DNA of 64,000 nucleotides from Clavibacter tessellarius (GTDB lineage Bacteria > Actinomycetota > Actinomycetes > Actinomycetales > Microbacteriaceae), in assembly GCF_001618005.1 (NCBI RefSeq), contig NZ_LQXA01000008.1, positions 1 through 64,000 of the forward strand, read 5' to 3'. A program made the translations under genes and the position numbers. The notes under the pieces are model-generated. The model searched no databases. It was not told the origin of the DNA and worked only from the letters and a program-made list of their open reading frames with translations. Shown here piece after piece: positions 54,008-60,757 of the stretch (position 1 is its first letter; the number at the start of each line of letters is the position of its first letter).

Positions 54008-55027
54008 TCAGCGCCCGCGCGCCACCGTCGACCCGCGCACGATCAGCTCGAAGCCCATCGTCTCGGAGCGGAAGGCTCCCGCGTCCGCACCGCGCTCGAT
54101 CCGCTCCGCCAGCATCGCGACCGCACGGCGGGCGATGGCGCGACGGCCGGGCGACACCGTGGTGAGCGGCGGCTGCGCGAAGCGGGAGTCCTCCGTGTCG
54201 TCGAGCCCCGCGACCGCCACGTCCTCGGGCACGCGGAGGCCGCGCTCCTGGAGCATCCACTGGGCGCCGAGCGCGAGGGAGTCGTTGAAGCCGAACACGG
54301 CGTCGAGCTCGACCCCGTCGTCGAGGAGGCGGGCCATCGCGGCGGCGCCGGATTCGCGGCGCCAGGGGCCGGGATCCGCCCGCAGGCGCGGATCGAGCGG
54401 GATGCCGGCCGCGGTGAGGGCGTCCTCGGCGCCGCGCTGCCGGAGCGCGGCGCCCGACGGCTCGCCCGCGTCCCGCACGCCGATGAGCGCGATGCGTCGC
54501 CGACCGGTCTCGACGAGGTGCGCGACCGCGGCGCGCGCGGCGTCCCGGTCGGCGATGAGCACCTGGTCGGCGAGGCCCTCGAGGAAGCGCTGGCCGATCA
54601 TCACGAGCGGCACGTCCAGGTCGATGAGGCCCGCGTCCTCCTGGTGCAGGGCGAGCGGCTCGTAGATCACGCCGTCGAGCACCTGGCGGTGGAGGCCCGA
54701 GAGCGCGCCGATCTCGCGGTCGCGCCGCCCCGCCGTCGTCTCGACGAGCACGCTGAGGCCGAGCTCGTCGGCCGCGTCGATCACGTCCTGCGCGAGCGGC
54801 GCGAGGTACGCGCTGTCGAGCTCGGGGATCACGAGCGCGATCATGCGCGACCGGCCGGAGCGCAGGTTCCGCGCCGAGACGTTCATCCGGTAGCCGAGCT
54901 CGGCGACGGCCGCCTCGATCCGCGCCCGCGTCCCGTCGCGCATGTAGGGGTAGCCGTTGAAGTAGTTGCTGACGGTCTTGATGGAGACGCCCGCGGCGCG
55001 CGCGACGTCGCTCATGGTCGCCGCCAT
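54008..55027 (-). CDS. LacI family regulator, cluster 2
   Basis: Repressor of 339 aa. The HTH is at the very N terminus (MSDVARAAGVSIKTVSNYFNGYPYM), the hinge NVSARNLRSGRSRMIALVIPELD follows, and the effector domain includes FGFNDSLALGAQWMLQERGLRVPEDVAVAGLDDTEDSRF. It lies 77 bp after the last permease of sugar importer cluster 2 and is probably the fourth gene of that operon. It is the likely binder of the two TACATCG-type sites at 58327-58360, giving autoregulation and control of GH127. Confidence 0.92.
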   Translation of the reverse strand: MAATMSDVARAAGVSIKTVSNYFNGYPYMRDGTRARIEAAVAELGYRMNVSARNLRSGRSRMIALVIPELDSAYLAPLAQDVIDAADELGLSVLVETTAGRRDREIGALSGLHRQVLDGVIYEPLALHQEDAGLIDLDVPLVMIGQRFLEGLADQVLIADRDAARAAVAHLVETGRRRIALIGVRDAGEPSGAALRQRGAEDALTAAGIPLDPRLRADPGPWRRESGAAAMARLLDDGVELDAVFGFNDSLALGAQWMLQERGLRVPEDVAVAGLDDTEDSRFAQPPLTTVSPGRRAIARRAVAMLAERIERGADAGAFRSETMGFELIVRGSTVARGR

Positions 55028-55104: not shown

Positions 55105-56019
55105 CTACTTCACCGCGCCGCTGATGAGGCCGGCCACGTAGTACCGCTGCAGCAGCAGGTAGAGCACGACGCACGGGATCACCGTGACGGCGACGCCCGT
55201 CTGCATCAGCCCCCAGTCGACCGTGTTGTTCTGCCCGGCCGACAGGATGTTGAGGCTCACCGGCAGCGTGTACAGGCTCTGGTCCGTGATGAGGATGAGC
55301 GTCGCGAAGAAGTCGTTCCACGCCGAGAAGAAGGTGAGGAGCGCGGTCGAGACGACGCCGGGGATCGCGATGGGCAGCATCACTCGCCGCATCGCCTGCA
55401 GCGGCGTGTTCCCGTCGATGAGCGCGGCCTCCTCGAGGCTCGCCGGCACCGCCGCGAACGAGTTCCGCATCAGGAAGATCCCGAACGGCAGGTTGAAGGT
55501 CGCGAGCACGAGCGAGAGGCCGACGAGGCTGTTGTCGAGGTCGAGCTCGATGAGCGTCAGGAACAGCGGCGTGATGATCGCCTGGAACGGGATCATGAAC
55601 GTGATGAGCACCAGGAAGAACACGAGGTCGCTCCCCCGGAACGGCAGCCGCGCGAACGCGTAGCCGGCGAGCGTCGACACCACGACCGTGAGCGCCGTCA
55701 CCAGCAGCGACACGAAGACGCTGTTGCGGAGGCTCGTCACGAGGTCGAGGCCGCCGGTCGGCGTGAGCAGCCGCTGCAGGTTCCCGAGCCCGATCGACCC
55801 GTCCTGCGCGGTGAGCGCGGTGCCGAGCATGATCCCGAGCGGGTAGAGGAAGAGGAGCGCGACGCAGCCGCACGCGACGTACCAGGCGAGCCGCGGCATC
55901 GAGGCGCGGACGGCGCCGAGGCCGCGGGCGTCGCGGGTGCGTCCGGCGCGATCCGGGGACGGGCCGGCGGAGGGCGCGTCGGCGGCGGAAGCGGGGCGGG
56001 CGGGCGCGGAGGTGCTCAT
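55105..56019 (-). CDS. Sugar ABC permease (MalG-like), cluster 2
   Basis: CUT1 permease of 304 aa with an about 45-residue Ala/Pro/Ser-rich N terminus and six membrane segments. The coupling motif is SLEEAALIDGNTPLQAMRRVMLPIAIP, and it ends in YVAGLISGAVK. Its ATG overlaps the MalF-like stop (ATGA). No ATPase gene follows. Confidence 0.92.
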   Translation of the reverse strand: MSTSAPARPASAADAPSAGPSPDRAGRTRDARGLGAVRASMPRLAWYVACGCVALLFLYPLGIMLGTALTAQDGSIGLGNLQRLLTPTGGLDLVTSLRNSVFVSLLVTALTVVVSTLAGYAFARLPFRGSDLVFFLVLITFMIPFQAIITPLFLTLIELDLDNSLVGLSLVLATFNLPFGIFLMRNSFAAVPASLEEAALIDGNTPLQAMRRVMLPIAIPGVVSTALLTFFSAWNDFFATLILITDQSLYTLPVSLNILSAGQNNTVDWGLMQTGVAVTVIPCVVLYLLLQRYYVAGLISGAVK

Positions 56020-56966
56020 GAGTGGTCCGAGTTCCGGAGGAGCAGCATCTGGGCTGCGCTGACGAGGCCGAGGACGACCATGAGGATGATGGAGAGCGCG
56101 GCCCCGTAGCCGAGGTCGAGCCGGATGAACGAGGAGCGGTAGATCTCGTAGACCGCCGTGATGGTGCCGTTGTCCGGCCCGCCCGCGGTCATGATGTAGA
56201 ACTGGTCGAACGCCAGCAGCGACCCGGCCACGCTGAACACCAGCACGAGCGCCAGGGTCGGCCGGAGCAGCGGCAGGGTGATGTAGACGAACCGCTGCCA
56301 GCGCGTGGATCCGTCCACCTCGGCCGCCTCGTTCACCTCCTGCGGGATCGACTGGAAGCCCGAGAGCAGCAGCAGCATCTGCAGCCCCGCCGACTTCCAC
56401 GCGACCATGCTCACCACCACGAGGAACGCGGTCACCGGCCCGCCGAACATGTTCGTCGAGACGTCGACGAGGCCGAGGCCCGCGAGCGCCGTCATGGTCG
56501 GCCCGATCACCGGCTGCCACATGAAGAGGAAGAGGTAGCTCGCGGAGGCGAGGCCCACCACGACCGGCAGGAAGAAGATCGACTGGAAGACGCGGGCGGT
56601 GCGGGTGCGGCGCTGGATGAGGAGCACGAGCGCGAACCCGATCACGAGGAGCACCGGGGTCACGACCGCCGTGTAGACGAGAGTGAAGCCCACGGCCTTG
56701 AGGAACGCGGCGTCCTGGAACGCCTCGACGTAGTTCGCGAGGCCCGTGAAGGCGCGGTTGCCGAGGAGCGGCCACGTGTAGGTCGACATGGCGACGGTGC
56801 GCATCAGCGGCCAGATGAAGAAGGTGACGAGCATCACGACGGCCGGCAGCACCAGGAGGATCCCGGTGCGGCGCCGCCTCCGCGCCATGCCGCCGCGGTC
56901 GCGCACCGCGCTGCGGGCCGGGGACGCGACGGCGCCCTCCAGCCGGGTGATCACGGGTGCGGTCAC
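56016..56966 (-). CDS. Sugar ABC permease (MalF-like), cluster 2
   Basis: CUT1 permease of 316 aa with six membrane segments. The coupling motif is EVNEAAEVDGSTRWQRFVYITLPLLRP. It starts at a GTG that overlaps the binding-protein stop (GTGA). It forms the translocation channel with the MalG-like partner; an ATPase must be supplied from elsewhere in the genome. Confidence 0.92.
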   Translation of the reverse strand: MTAPVITRLEGAVASPARSAVRDRGGMARRRRRTGILLVLPAVVMLVTFFIWPLMRTVAMSTYTWPLLGNRAFTGLANYVEAFQDAAFLKAVGFTLVYTAVVTPVLLVIGFALVLLIQRRTRTARVFQSIFFLPVVVGLASASYLFLFMWQPVIGPTMTALAGLGLVDVSTNMFGGPVTAFLVVVSMVAWKSAGLQMLLLLSGFQSIPQEVNEAAEVDGSTRWQRFVYITLPLLRPTLALVLVFSVAGSLLAFDQFYIMTAGGPDNGTITAVYEIYRSSFIRLDLGYGAALSIILMVVLGLVSAAQMLLLRNSDHS

Positions 56967-58249
56967 TTCTCGTCCTCCTCGACGTAGACGACGGAGTCGA
57001 GGATGCGCTGCGCGTCGGCCTGGGCCTCGCGCTGCGCGTCGTCGATGCCGCCGCCGAACACGGACTGCGAGATCAGGTTCACCCAGACCCCGTTGTTGTC
57101 GTTGAACAGCTCGTTCTCGACCGGGCTGAAGGGCACGTGGCCGACGCGGAGGGCGTCCGCGAACACGGCATACCGCGGATCCTGCGGCACGTAGACCTCG
57201 TCGAGCAGGTCGGTGCGGATGGGCACGACCGACTGCTCGGCGAGGATCGTCTGCGCCTCGTCGCCCGTCGCCCACCGCACGAACTCCCACGCGGCGTCGA
57301 CGTCGTCGGACCCCTTGAGGATGGTGAGCGTGTCGCCGCCGCCGAAGGACGCGGAACCGCCGTCCTTCCCCGGCAGCGGGGTGACGCCGAAGTCGACCTG
57401 TCCGCCCGCGACGAGCGCGCCCATGGTGGCGGTGCCGTCGGCGATCATGCCGACGTTGCCCTGCTGGAACGCGGTGGCGGTGTTCGGGCCGGCGTCGGTG
57501 CGGGCCAGGGACGGCATGCTGCCGTCGGTCCACATGCCGCGCATCAGCTCGAGCGCCTCCGTCACCTCGGGGCTGTCGAGCGTGGCGGTGCGGCCGTCGG
57601 CGGTGAGCACGTCGCCGCCGCTCCCCCAGATCAGCGGCGTGAAGCCGAAGATGAGGCAGCCGCCGCACGCGCCGGGGATGGAGTAGCCGTAGGTGCGGTC
57701 GCCGAGCGCGGTGATGGCCTTCGCGGCCGCGCGGATCTCGGCGTGCGTCGTCGGCGGGCGCTCGGGATCCAGCCCGGCCTCGGCGAAGAGCGTCTTGTTG
57801 TAGAAGAGCACGGAGGCGTCGCCCGTGAAGGGGACCGCGTAGGTGCGGCCCTCGAAGGACGAGACGGACGCGTGCGCCGGGCTGAAGGCGTCGGCGTATC
57901 CGAGCGCGTCGACCCGGTCGGTGATGTCGACGAGGGCGCCCGCCTGCGCGAAGTACGGCGTGAACACCAGGTCGAGCGCGGCCACGTCGGGCGGGTCGCC
58001 GCCCGCGATGGAGGTCGCCAGCTTCTGCACGTAGCTCGGCGACGGCACGAGCGTGATCTCGACCTGCGTCTCGTGCGTGGCGTTGTAGGCCTCGGCGAGC
58101 GGCTCGACGAGCGCCTTCTCGTAGTCGCGGATCCAGAGCTGCACGGTGCCGTCGCCCGCGTCGCCGGATCCGGCGGAGCAGCCCGAGAGCGCGAGGCCCG
58201 TGATCATGAGGGTCGCCGCGGCGGCCAGCCTCGTCGTGGTCCGCTTCAT
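56963..58249 (-). CDS. Sugar-binding lipoprotein, cluster 2
   Basis: CUT1 solute-binding lipoprotein of 428 aa. The signal peptide ends in LALSGC (Cys 24). VQLWIRDYEKALVEPLAEAYNATHETQVEITLVP is the typical family 1 beginning, and YAVPFTGDASVLFYNKTLFAEAGLDPERPP follows. A CGGC motif (SIPGACGGCLIFG) in the middle is uncommon and could form a disulfide. GAGGAG lies upstream of ATG. It is divergent from a GH127 gene, so the imported sugar is probably an arabinofuranose oligomer or other arabinose-containing glycan. This is inference. Confidence 0.92.
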   Translation of the reverse strand: MKRTTTRLAAAATLMITGLALSGCSAGSGDAGDGTVQLWIRDYEKALVEPLAEAYNATHETQVEITLVPSPSYVQKLATSIAGGDPPDVAALDLVFTPYFAQAGALVDITDRVDALGYADAFSPAHASVSSFEGRTYAVPFTGDASVLFYNKTLFAEAGLDPERPPTTHAEIRAAAKAITALGDRTYGYSIPGACGGCLIFGFTPLIWGSGGDVLTADGRTATLDSPEVTEALELMRGMWTDGSMPSLARTDAGPNTATAFQQGNVGMIADGTATMGALVAGGQVDFGVTPLPGKDGGSASFGGGDTLTILKGSDDVDAAWEFVRWATGDEAQTILAEQSVVPIRTDLLDEVYVPQDPRYAVFADALRVGHVPFSPVENELFNDNNGVWVNLISQSVFGGGIDDAQREAQADAQRILDSVVYVEEDEK

Positions 58250-58326
58250 CGCGCTCCTCGTGTCCGTGATGCGTCGGCCCGTCGGGGCTCGGCCGCGAGG
58301 CCGCACGCACCGCCCTGGTGCCCTTC

Positions 58327-58371
58327 TACATCGTTGTACTAGATTATGTGCATCGATGTACAGCCCGTCAA
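58327..58371 (-). promoter_or_regulatory. Promoter of cluster 2 with two LacI-type operators
   Basis: Toward the importer, TTGACG (58366-58371) and CATAAT (58343-58348) are exactly 17 bases apart, a strong actinobacterial housekeeping promoter. Operator 1, TACATCGTTGTA (58327-58338), lies downstream of the -10 near the start of transcription. Operator 2, TGCATCGATGTA (58349-58360), fills the spacer. Their centres are 22 bp apart, about two helical turns. The region is shared with the divergent GH127 gene. Confidence 0.65.
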
Positions 58372-58381
58372 GAGGACCCCG

Positions 58382-60757
58382 ATGACCATCGCCCCCGCCG
58401 CCCCGCGCCCCGCCGCCGCCAGCCCGGGCGCCGCCCGGTCGTTCCCGCTCCAGGCCGTGCGGTTGGGCGACGGCCCGCTCCGGCACGCGCAGCTGACCGA
58501 TGTCGAGCACGTCCTCCGCATGGATCCCGACCGGCTGCTCGCGCCGTACCTCCGCGAGGCCGGGCTCGACTCCCCCGTTCCGAGCTACGGCAGCTGGGAG
58601 GCGATCGGCCTCGACGGTCACATCGGCGGCCACCTGCTCTCCGCGCTCGCGCAGCTGCACGCCGCCACCGGCGACCCGCGGCTCCTCCCCCGGCTCGAGC
58701 ACATGCTCGACGTGCTCGAGCGCTGCCAGGAGGCGGCCGGCGACGGCTGGCTCGGCGGCGTGCCCGACGGCCGCGCGTTCGGCCGCACCATCGCCGAGGG
58801 CCGGATCGAGGCGGACACCTTCGACCTCGAGGGCCGGTGGGTGCCGCTCTACAACCTGCACAAGACCCTCCGCGGGCTGCTCCACGCGCACGAGCACGCC
58901 GGATCCGCCCGCGCTCTGCGCATGGCCGAGGGCCTCGCCGGCTGGTGGCTCGGCGTCTCCGCGCACCTCGACGACGACGCGTTCGAGGGCATGCTCGCGA
59001 CCGAGCACGGCGGCATGTGCGACGCGTTCGCGACCCTCGCGGGGATCACCGGCCGCGCCGACCTGCTCGCGGAGGCGCGGCGGTTCGCGCAGCGCGCGCT
59101 GGTGGATCCGCTCGCCGCCGGCCGCGACGAGCTCGACGGGCTGCACGCCAACACCCAGATCCCCAAGGTGATCGGCGTCGAGCGGCTCGGGCGGATGACG
59201 GGCGACGCGCGCCTGCTCGCCGCCTCCGACGCGTTCTGGGACTCGGTGGCCCACCGGCGGAGCGTCGTGATCGGCGGCAACAGCGTGCGCGAGCACTTCC
59301 ACCCGGCGCGCGACTTCGCGCCCATGGTGCTCGACGAGCAGGGGCCGGAGACCTGCAACAGCTACAACATGCTGGAGCTCGGGCGGCTGCGGTTCGAGCG
59401 CACGGGCGACCCGGCGATCCTCGACCAGGTCGAGCGCACGATGCTCGACCACGTGCTCTCCACGCAGCACCCCGAGCACGGCGGCCTCGTCTACTTCACG
59501 TCGCTCAGACCCGCGCACCACCGCGTGTACTCGGTCGCCGGCGAGTCGATGTGGTGCTGCGTCGGCACGGGCATGGAGAACCACGCGCGCTACGGCGAGC
59601 AGGTGTTCGCGCGGACGGACGACGCGCTGCTCGTGGACCTCTACGTGCCGGCCGAGCTGGACTGGGCCGCGCGCGGGATCCGGGCGCGCATCGCGGGCGA
59701 AGTGGCGCGCGCGGGCTCCGCGACGGTCACGATCACGGCGGACGCGCCCGCCGACCTGGAGCTGCGGCTCCGGCGGCCGGGGTGGGCGACGTCGATGGAG
59801 GTGCGGGTGGGGGACGACCCGGTGGCCGTGGTGCCCGGTGCCGCCTGGGTGCCGATCCGCCGCACCTGGTCGAGCGAGGCCGTCGTGACCGTCCGCTTCG
59901 GCATGGAGGTGCGGGCCGAGGGCCTGCCCGACGGATCCGCGTGGACGTCGTTCCGCTACGGCCCGGTCGCGCTCGCCTCGCGTGACGGCCGGGACGGGAT
60001 CGCGACGTCGCTCGCCGAGGACTCCCGCATGGGGCACGTGTCGCCCGCGCCCAAGGTGCCGCTCGAGCGGACGCCCGTGGTGACCGCGGTCGACCCGGCC
60101 GACGCCGTGACGCTGGTCGACCGCGGCGCGCTCGCCTTCCGTCTCGACGCGTGGCGGGGCGGCGAGCGGGTGGAGGTCGCGCTCGAGCCGTTCGCCGGGA
60201 TCCACGACGAGCGGCACACGCTCGTCTGGCCCACGGGCGCCGACCCGGTGGCGCGCGCCGCCGAGCTCGCCGCGATGGACGCGGCCGGCACCGACGCGGC
60301 CGTGGTCGACGAGGTGGTCGCGGGCGAGCAGCAGCCCGAGGTCGACCACGCGTTCCGCGGCGAGGGCACGCGAGCGGGCGGCGCCGACGGCCGGCACTGG
60401 CGCAGCGCGACGGGCTGGTTCGGGTACGAGCTGCGCGATCCTGCGGGCACGGCGACCGTGGTGCGGGTGCTGCTGCGGCGGGAGGCGGTGGGCGGCGACG
60501 CCGCACCCGGCCCCGCGGCCGATGCCGCTCCCGTCGGCCAGGCCGCCCGCGTCGGCCAGGCCGTCCGCGTCGGCGGCGTCGAGGCGGAGCACGTCGCCGA
60601 GGTGGATCTCGGCGGCGAGGTCGGCGACGACGCCCTCGATGTGCGGATCACCGACGCCATGCGCGCCGGATCCCCCGCGGGCGCGCTCGCGGTGTCGGTG
60701 CACGCGGCTCCGGGCGGGCGCACGCGCGACGTGCTCGGGATCCAGCTGCGCCGCTGA
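58382..60757 (+). CDS. GH127 family enzyme, probable beta-L-arabinofuranosidase
   Basis: Glycoside hydrolase of 791 aa with no signal peptide, so cytoplasmic. Conserved GH127 landmarks: PSYGSWEAIGLDGHIGGHLLSALA near residue 70, HGGMCDAFATLAGITG, GPETCNSYNMLELGRL and SMWCCVGTGMENHARYGEQVF. The Glu and three Cys in the last two match the zinc-binding and catalytic-cysteine cluster of HypBA1 (E338, C340, C417, C418). The C terminus adds beta-sandwich domains. ATG at 58382 has AGAGGA 5 bases upstream; an ATG at 58346 lies in the operator. It is divergent from sugar importer 2, so imported arabinose-containing oligosaccharides are likely substrates. GH146-type arabinanase activity is an alternative. 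Confidence 0.85.
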   Translation: MTIAPAAPRPAAASPGAARSFPLQAVRLGDGPLRHAQLTDVEHVLRMDPDRLLAPYLREAGLDSPVPSYGSWEAIGLDGHIGGHLLSALAQLHAATGDPRLLPRLEHMLDVLERCQEAAGDGWLGGVPDGRAFGRTIAEGRIEADTFDLEGRWVPLYNLHKTLRGLLHAHEHAGSARALRMAEGLAGWWLGVSAHLDDDAFEGMLATEHGGMCDAFATLAGITGRADLLAEARRFAQRALVDPLAAGRDELDGLHANTQIPKVIGVERLGRMTGDARLLAASDAFWDSVAHRRSVVIGGNSVREHFHPARDFAPMVLDEQGPETCNSYNMLELGRLRFERTGDPAILDQVERTMLDHVLSTQHPEHGGLVYFTSLRPAHHRVYSVAGESMWCCVGTGMENHARYGEQVFARTDDALLVDLYVPAELDWAARGIRARIAGEVARAGSATVTITADAPADLELRLRRPGWATSMEVRVGDDPVAVVPGAAWVPIRRTWSSEAVVTVRFGMEVRAEGLPDGSAWTSFRYGPVALASRDGRDGIATSLAEDSRMGHVSPAPKVPLERTPVVTAVDPADAVTLVDRGALAFRLDAWRGGERVEVALEPFAGIHDERHTLVWPTGADPVARAAELAAMDAAGTDAAVVDEVVAGEQQPEVDHAFRGEGTRAGGADGRHWRSATGWFGYELRDPAGTATVVRVLLRREAVGGDAAPGPAADAAPVGQAARVGQAVRVGGVEAEHVAEVDLGGEVGDDALDVRITDAMRAGSPAGALAVSVHAAPGGRTRDVLGIQLRR

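What the first reader, a model, noticed from the sequence alone, without database searches (positions are those of the whole stretch)
58327..58371. Two helically phased operators controlling importer and GH127
Sites centred 22 bp apart, one in the promoter spacer and one near the transcription start, give a two-operator switch for cluster 2, and the same sites lie upstream of GH127. The autoregulated LacI at 54008 would couple uptake to hydrolysis. I saw no other copies of this motif in the window.
Basis: partly seen in the sequence, partly recalled or inferred. Interest (0 to 1): 0.52.

Follow-up and report, generated by a model that had tools for sequence, protein, structure and literature searches.

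The report
Paired repressor sites for arabinose-sugar genes
Two short mirror-image DNA sites between a sugar-importer operon and a sugar-cutting enzyme gene are very likely the landing sites of the repressor made by that same operon; this is a well-kept but ordinary kind of bacterial sugar switch.

Summary
The two sites exist as described: TACATCGTTGTA (58327-58338) and TGCATCGATGTA (58349-58360), 22 bp apart, the only matches in the window at up to 2 mismatches. In the 11 of 18 same-genus genomes that hold the divergon, the pair sits in a 40-bp invariant block; the next longest invariant run is 15. The motif follows the LacI type: exact TACANCGNTGTA lies within 4 kb of 84 of 110 LacI genes with a K-TVS-N helix (58 of 74 after thinning at 80% identity), against 0 of 17 other LacI genes and 0-9 of 110 for rearranged half-sites. 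So these are, very probably, operators of the LacI at 54008-55027, last gene of the importer operon. The enzyme is closer to GH146 than GH127; the binding protein is closest to the beta-L-arabinobiose-binding protein of Bifidobacterium. "Helically phased" is weak: related pairs are 22-26 bp apart, some with 13-bp steps. A second LacI, universal in the genus, has the identical 12-bp core beside it in 17 of 18 genomes, so cross-talk is possible. Close to known LacI biology (BauR1 regulon; published 13/22/32-bp spacings). No binding was tested.

The parts
58327..58338 (.). Operator 1, TACATCGTTGTA: over the predicted importer transcription start, and upstream of the possible hydrolase -10
   Evidence: inside the 40-bp block invariant in 11 of 11 genomes
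58349..58360 (.). Operator 2, TGCATCGATGTA: in the -35/-10 spacer of the importer promoter, and over the inferred hydrolase transcription start
   Evidence: inside the same invariant block
58322..58361 (.). 40-bp block identical in the 11 same-genus genomes that hold the divergon; next longest invariant run in that alignment is 15
58343..58371 (-). Importer promoter: -35 TTGACG (58371-58366), 17-bp spacer, -10 CATAAT (58348-58343)
   Evidence: -10 invariant in 11 of 11; -35 TTGACG in 10 of 11, TTAACG in one (L243)
58340..58345 (+). Possible -10 (TAGATT) of the hydrolase promoter, overlapping the importer -10; no good -35 seen
   Evidence: read from the sequence, inferred; lies in the only long invariant stretch between the two genes
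56963..58249 (-). Solute-binding protein of an ABC sugar importer
   Evidence: Pfam PF01547 2.5e-46; best solved relative 6lce, 5.3e-54
56016..56969 (-). ABC permease 1
   Evidence: Pfam PF00528 2.7e-13
55105..56019 (-). ABC permease 2
   Evidence: Pfam PF00528 4e-16
54008..55027 (-). LacI-family regulator, 339 aa, recognition helix VSIKTVSN, hinge YRMNVSARNLR; last gene of the importer run, 77 bp after permease 2
   Evidence: Pfam PF00356 3.4e-15 and PF13377 4.4e-32; helix and hinge compared
58382..60757 (+). Beta-L-arabinofuranosidase-type hydrolase, 791 aa, no signal peptide seen by eye, GH146-like; RBS AGAGGA at 58371-58376
   Evidence: Pfam PF07944 1.6e-102; 5opj 2e-165; GAGGA-C/T-CCCGATGACC start kept in 11 of 11

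Best explanation
The element is a divergent control region with two LacI-family operators. The LacI encoded at 54008-55027 binds both when its sugar is absent. Operator 2 blocks the spacer of the importer promoter and operator 1 its start point; because the hydrolase promoter seems to share the same AT-rich core, both directions are shut together. When beta-L-arabinofuranosyl oligosaccharides (or a product of their cleavage) enter through the importer, LacI lets go, and importer, LacI and hydrolase are made together. LacI is the last gene of the importer run, so it is autoregulated from these sites. Shown by comparison: motif, conservation, coupling to the LacI type, gene make-up. Inferred: binding, repression, co-transcription, the inducer, the hydrolase promoter, cooperation between the two sites.
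For: Invariant 40-bp block carrying both sites and the -10 in 11 of 11 genomes, next-best run 15. LacI at 91% identity or more is in the same 11 of 18 genus genomes; the 7 without it lack the pair (cluster and sites come and go together). LacI orthologs in other genera (56-62% identical) keep a doublet: by a GH51 followed by lacI and an epimerase in 6 of 6 checked (L049, L086, L087, L090-L092), or by a GH127 in L088 and L089. Exact TACANCGNTGTA within 4 kb of 84 of 110 K-TVS-N LacI genes, 0 of 17 others, 0-9 of 110 for the 11 rearranged half-sites; 58 of 74 after thinning at 80% identity. Importer homologs (48-54%) in other families: 6 of 7 loci lack the motif, and the LacI helix read in 5 of those 6 is another type; the seventh has a KKTVSN LacI and TACACCGATGTA. 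Promoter. Substrate.
Against: No binding or expression data. LacI and its sites form one cluster, so their joint presence within the genus is not independent evidence. Both sites are imperfect palindromes. 26 of 110 K-TVS-N loci have no exact site within 4 kb. No -35 was found for the hydrolase. In 9 of 11 genomes 51-110 bp more lie between operator 2 and the hydrolase start than here (72-131 against 21). The inducer is inferred from homology only.
Confidence: 0.9

Rival explanations
1. One operator per promoter: operator 1 serves mainly the importer start and operator 2 the hydrolase start, with no cooperation between them.
For: Each site covers the start predicted for one direction. Spacing varies from 22 to 26 bp in related loci, which argues against strict face-to-face contact. 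The LacI is 339 aa against 360 for intact E. coli LacI; that the extra tail holds the tetramer helix is recalled.
Against: Doublets also occur by a one-way GH51 gene, with the upstream neighbour in the same direction, in L049, L086, L087, L090, L091 and L092. Published LacI site pairs peak at 22 bp, read there as cooperative binding (PMC4052901 section 9).
Confidence: 0.3
2. The sites answer to two repressors: the local LacI and the C28 LacI, whose own operator has the same 12-bp core as operator 1.
For: TACATCGTTGTA/TACAACGATGTA lies beside the C28-type LacI in 17 of 18 genus genomes and is operator 1 here; both LacI share K16 and N20.
Against: AA-15 (I against P) and AA-47 (M against P) differ. 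Flanks differ. The pair is absent from the 7 genomes with the C28 type alone, as expected if it only comes with its own cluster.
Confidence: 0.25
3. Chance palindromes in an AT-rich promoter of a GC-rich genome.
For: Two-mismatch copies do occur by chance (reversed control 12 strand-matches in the genome), and one rearranged half-site reached 9 of 110 loci.
Against: Rarity at up to 1 mismatch with control 0, invariance in 11 genomes and coupling to the LacI type.
Confidence: 0.02

Closest known systems
BauR1 regulon of Bifidobacterium (LacI; hypBA1, hypBA2, bauABC), PMC5928203 (passages seen)
   Same: A LacI gene is assigned a beta-arabinooligosaccharide ABC importer and beta-L-arabinofuranosidase genes; the binding protein here is closest to the solved beta-arabinobiose-binding protein of B. 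longum (6lce).
   Different: The hydrolase here is GH146-like; a GH121 was not looked for; BauR1's sequence and motif letters were not seen, so orthology and operator were not compared.
LacI-family tandem operators, PMC4052901 (section 9 read, other passages seen)
   Same: Even palindromes with central CG; intersite peaks at 13, 22 and 32 bp, of which 22 and 13 occur here.
   Different: Its main text gave no hit for 'arabin' or 'Micrococc' (supplements not seen); the related pairs here spread over 22-26 bp.
LacI recognition code, PMC2978694 (part 2 of 7 read)
   Same: AA-20 linked to NT-6; AA-15/AA-16 to NT-5/NT-4; NT-2 to AA-55, AA-15 and AA-5.
   Different: That code is worked out for TVS-R proteins; all 110 here are TVS-N. 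With AA-55 fixed (R in 22 of 22 aliphatic and 77 of 78 proline rows), NT-2 still differs with AA-47. In the K-15 and E-15 rows AA-55 changes too (S, G), as that paper would allow.
BT0349 (BtGH146, PDB 5opj)
   Same: 555.6 bits over residues 20-691; GPETCN and SMWCCVG stretches aligned; named BtGH146 with a cysteine nucleophile in PMC10728902 (passages).
   Different: Different phylum; activity not tested here.

Membership tests
LacI-family repressor/operator pair | LacI HTH and sugar-binding domain | tested here: met
   PF00356 3.4e-15, PF13377 4.4e-32
LacI-family repressor/operator pair | Even palindromic operator with central CG | tested here: met
   Both sites, imperfect palindromes; feature from PMC4052901
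LacI-family repressor/operator pair | Motif goes with the LacI recognition residues | tested here: met
   84 of 110 against 0 of 17; NT-2 classes
LacI-family repressor/operator pair | The protein binds the sites and releases on a sugar | not testable with these tools
   needs a binding assay
Helically phased operator pair | Conserved spacing near whole helical turns | tested here: not met
   22 bp in 11 of 11 genus genomes, but 23, 24, 25 and 26 in other genera
BauR1-type beta-arabinooligosaccharide regulon | LacI + beta-arabinoside-type importer + beta-L-arabinofuranosidase-type enzyme at one control region | tested here: met
   by homology only
BauR1-type beta-arabinooligosaccharide regulon | LacI orthologous to BauR1, same operator | not tested
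   no BauR1 sequence or motif letters were fetched
GH127 | Closest to characterised GH127 enzymes | tested here: not met
   5opj (GH146) 555.6 bits against 4qjy (GH127) 48.8 bits; Pfam PF07944, named GH127 catalytic domain, is met
GH146 | Closest to a characterised GH146 enzyme, cysteine site kept | tested here: met
   alignment; 5opj named BtGH146 in PMC10728902; no CAZy assignment was run

The most novel reading that the evidence does not exclude
Two paralogous repressors, one for alpha-arabinosides (C28 type, 18 of 18 genus genomes, near GH51 genes) and one for beta-arabinosides (this one, 11 of 18), share a near-identical operator language (TACA-N-CG-N-TGTA). What separates them is base NT-2, read by recognition residue AA-15 and hinge residue AA-47 (proline with A; M, V, I or L with T), and the start-site operator can be read by both. 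The doublet would then be an alpha/beta arabinoside logic gate.
Probability: 0.2. Interest if true: 0.5.

Novelty: new member of a known kind. Interest (0 to 1): 0.3.

Why it matters
It gives a well-supported regulatory annotation for a beta-arabinoside import and cleavage system in plant-associated actinobacteria, and a large natural series (110 TVS-N LacI genes, 100 with a site at up to 1 mismatch within 4 kb) in a class that the published LacI recognition code left aside. That series makes the role of hinge residue 47 and recognition residue 15 in reading operator base 2 directly testable.

Tried and rejected
Rejected: (1) C44:28686 (TACAACGTTGTA, upstream of GH51) as a member of this LacI's regulon alone. 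The site is kept in 18 of 18 genus genomes, including the 7 without this LacI, so the universal C28-type LacI is the likelier owner (inferred). (2) The ATG at 58346, in frame with the hydrolase, as its start: the distance from operator 2 to the hydrolase start varies (21 to 131 bp), while the start at 58382 with its RBS is kept. (3) AA-47/NT-2 as a proven rule: 72 of 72 proline rows have T in under half of their half-sites and 18 of 19 aliphatic rows have T in half or more, but only 1-2 phylogenetically independent contrasts exist, so it stays a lead. That count used 91 of 127 rows: rows without sites, with K, E or P at AA-15, or without K16 and N20 were dropped. In the K-15 (3) and E-15 (1) rows AA-55 changes as well, so those cannot be put down to AA-15 alone.

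In print: a search for three motif strings found 62 papers; none of the 20 listed bears on LacI operators by title, and the other 42 were not seen. Clavibacter + LacI + arabinofuranosidase gave 2 papers, neither on this by title. Most subscription journals are not in that library.

Against the reading: 26 of 110 K-TVS-N LacI loci have no exact site within 4 kb (L050 and L089 have theirs about 5 kb away); one control half-site (ACATNC) reached 9 of 110. The 127 loci hold near-copies; thinned at 80% identity the figure is 58 of 74. One locus (L052, 23% identical) was left out.

Full report
What was checked. The window is contig 8 of a 3.30-Mb genome in 61 contigs. The nearest named relatives of its LacI are Clavibacter (91-96% identical, 3 loci), then Frondihabitans (62%) and Rathayibacter (49%), so the genus is inferred to be Clavibacter. 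The two sites are at 58327-58338 and 58349-58360, centres 22 bp apart, and are the only places in the window matching TACATCGWTGTA at up to 2 mismatches. In the genome 5 places match at up to 1 mismatch and none match the reversed control; at 2 mismatches the control matches too (12 strand-matches against 34).

Anatomy. On the minus strand run a solute-binding protein, two permeases and a LacI gene; on the plus strand a hydrolase of Pfam family PF07944. The minus promoter is TTGACG-17-CATAAT, 58371-58343. Operator 2 is in its spacer, operator 1 over the predicted start. LacI starts 77 bp after permease 2, so control of the importer promoter is probably also control of LacI (co-transcription is inferred). 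On the plus side TAGATT at 58340-58345 is a possible -10, but I found no good -35 (inferred).

Conservation. A 181-base query around the divergon matches over its upstream part in 11 of 18 genus genomes; 2 more have only weak hits of about 30 bp and 5 have none. The 11 are the ones that carry the LacI at 91% identity or more. In those 11, 40 columns (58322-58361) are invariant; the next longest invariant run is 15. The -35 is TTGACG in 10 and TTAACG in 1. From operator 2 to the hydrolase start are 21 bp in this genome and G309, and 72-131 bp in the other 9.

The motif follows the repressor. I used 127 loci around LacI homologs: the window, the own-genome C28 copy, 5 named loci and 120 from unnamed family genomes; the 120 were picked from the rows that one search printed, which cover 160 of 299 genomes with a match. 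Of these, 110 have K at AA-16 and N at AA-20. Exact TACANCGNTGTA within 4 kb: 84 of 110, against 0 of 17 loci with other residues; the 11 rearranged half-sites gave 0-9 of 110. Thinned at 80% identity: 58 of 74. Importer homologs at 48-54% identity in other families lack the motif in 6 of 7 loci (the LacI helix was read in 5 of the 6 and is of another type); in the seventh the LacI is KKTVSN and a TACACCGATGTA lies just after it; two more distant importer loci also lack it. This is the strongest evidence that the local LacI, not some other factor, reads these sites.

Regulon content. In 6 of 6 non-Clavibacter orthologs checked (L049, L086, L087, L090-L092; LacI 56-62% identical) the doublet lies at the start of a GH51 gene (59-62% identical to the C44 GH51), followed by lacI and then an aldose 1-epimerase; Pfam was run on the L049 GH51 and on the L049 and L086 epimerases only. 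In L088 and L089 the gene is a GH127. So this LacI group is tied to arabinosaccharides.

Substrate. The hydrolase's best solved relative is 5opj (2e-165), which PMC10728902 calls BtGH146 (passages); GH127 4qjy scores 48.8 bits. The binding protein's best is 6lce (5.3e-54), the beta-arabinobiose-binding protein of B. longum (PMC8106489, passages). I therefore expect import and then cytosolic cleavage of beta-linked arabinofuranosides; the activity is untested.

Spacing. Pairs are 22 bp apart in all 11 genus genomes, 23 in L049 and L086, 24 in L087, L091 and L092, 25 in L090, 26 in L102 (a more distant relative, 51%), and 24/13/13 and 13/23 in the arrays of L088 and L089. From 22 to 26 bp the helical offset moves by nearly 140 degrees (at 10.5 bp a turn), so phasing is not a fixed requirement, though a doublet recurs. 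Published LacI site pairs peak at 13, 22 and 32 bp (PMC4052901 section 9), so the arrangement is of a known kind.

A second regulator. The C28-type LacI (VSPKTVSN here) is in 18 of 18 genus genomes, with an exact TACAACGATGTA beside it in 17 of 18 by coordinates (neighbours read in 6 such loci). A GH51 gene with TACAACGTTGTA about 60-95 bp upstream is in 18 of 18. A second GH51 within about 5 kb of the C28-type LacI is in 16 of 18, not in this genome or G309. The C28 operator has the same 12-bp core as operator 1 here, which leaves cross-talk open.

Recognition residues. Counting sites at up to 1 mismatch and leaving out K, E and P at AA-15, NT-2 half-sites are A in 262 of 274 with proline at AA-47, and T in 53 of 74 (A in 21) with M, V, I or L. 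With K at AA-15 they are C in 11 of 12 (3 LacI), with E, G in 4 of 4 (1 LacI); with P at AA-15 and AA-47, T in 6 of 10. AA-55 is R in 22 of 22 aliphatic and 77 of 78 proline rows but S or G in the K-15 and E-15 rows. The link of NT-2 with AA-55 and AA-15 is in print (PMC2978694, part 2 of 7 read); AA-47 was not named in the part I read. The tree needs 7 changes of the AA-47 label, at least 3 forced, but only 1-2 independent contrasts where both traits are known.

Verdict. It is a new member of a known kind, of modest interest.

Noticed in passing
window 54008-55027 and loci L021, L047-L051, L083-L202: Operator base NT-2 goes with LacI residues AA-15 and AA-47 across 110 TVS-N LacI genes; few independent contrasts.
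   Followed up: partly
L051:7001-7930, L127, L136, L187: Variant operators: TACACCGGTGTA beside KKTVSN LacI and TACAGCGCTGTA beside an EKTVSN LacI.
   Followed up: partly
L021:6616-9075 (genome C28): A second LacI with an importer whose operator shares the 12-bp core of operator 1; this genome and G309 lack the GH51 that 16 other genus members have near it.
   Followed up: partly
L022:8648-10639 and L030 around 1400: Another PF07944 hydrolase and importer on C44, with a divergent LacI (VATASK helix) and a different palindrome, ACCGAAACCGGTTTCGGT.
   Followed up: no
genome C47:112293-112304 (L005): One-mismatch copy TAGATCGTTGTA near another LacI gene.
   Followed up: no
L219 (G166:C1:126812) and G166:C1:1769512: Two extra exact TACAACGTTGTA copies in one genus genome; the first has none of the genes I compared within 1.5 kb, the second was not read.
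   Followed up: no
58361-58381: From operator 2 to the hydrolase start are 21 bp here and in G309 but 72-131 bp in the other 9 genus genomes.
   Followed up: partly
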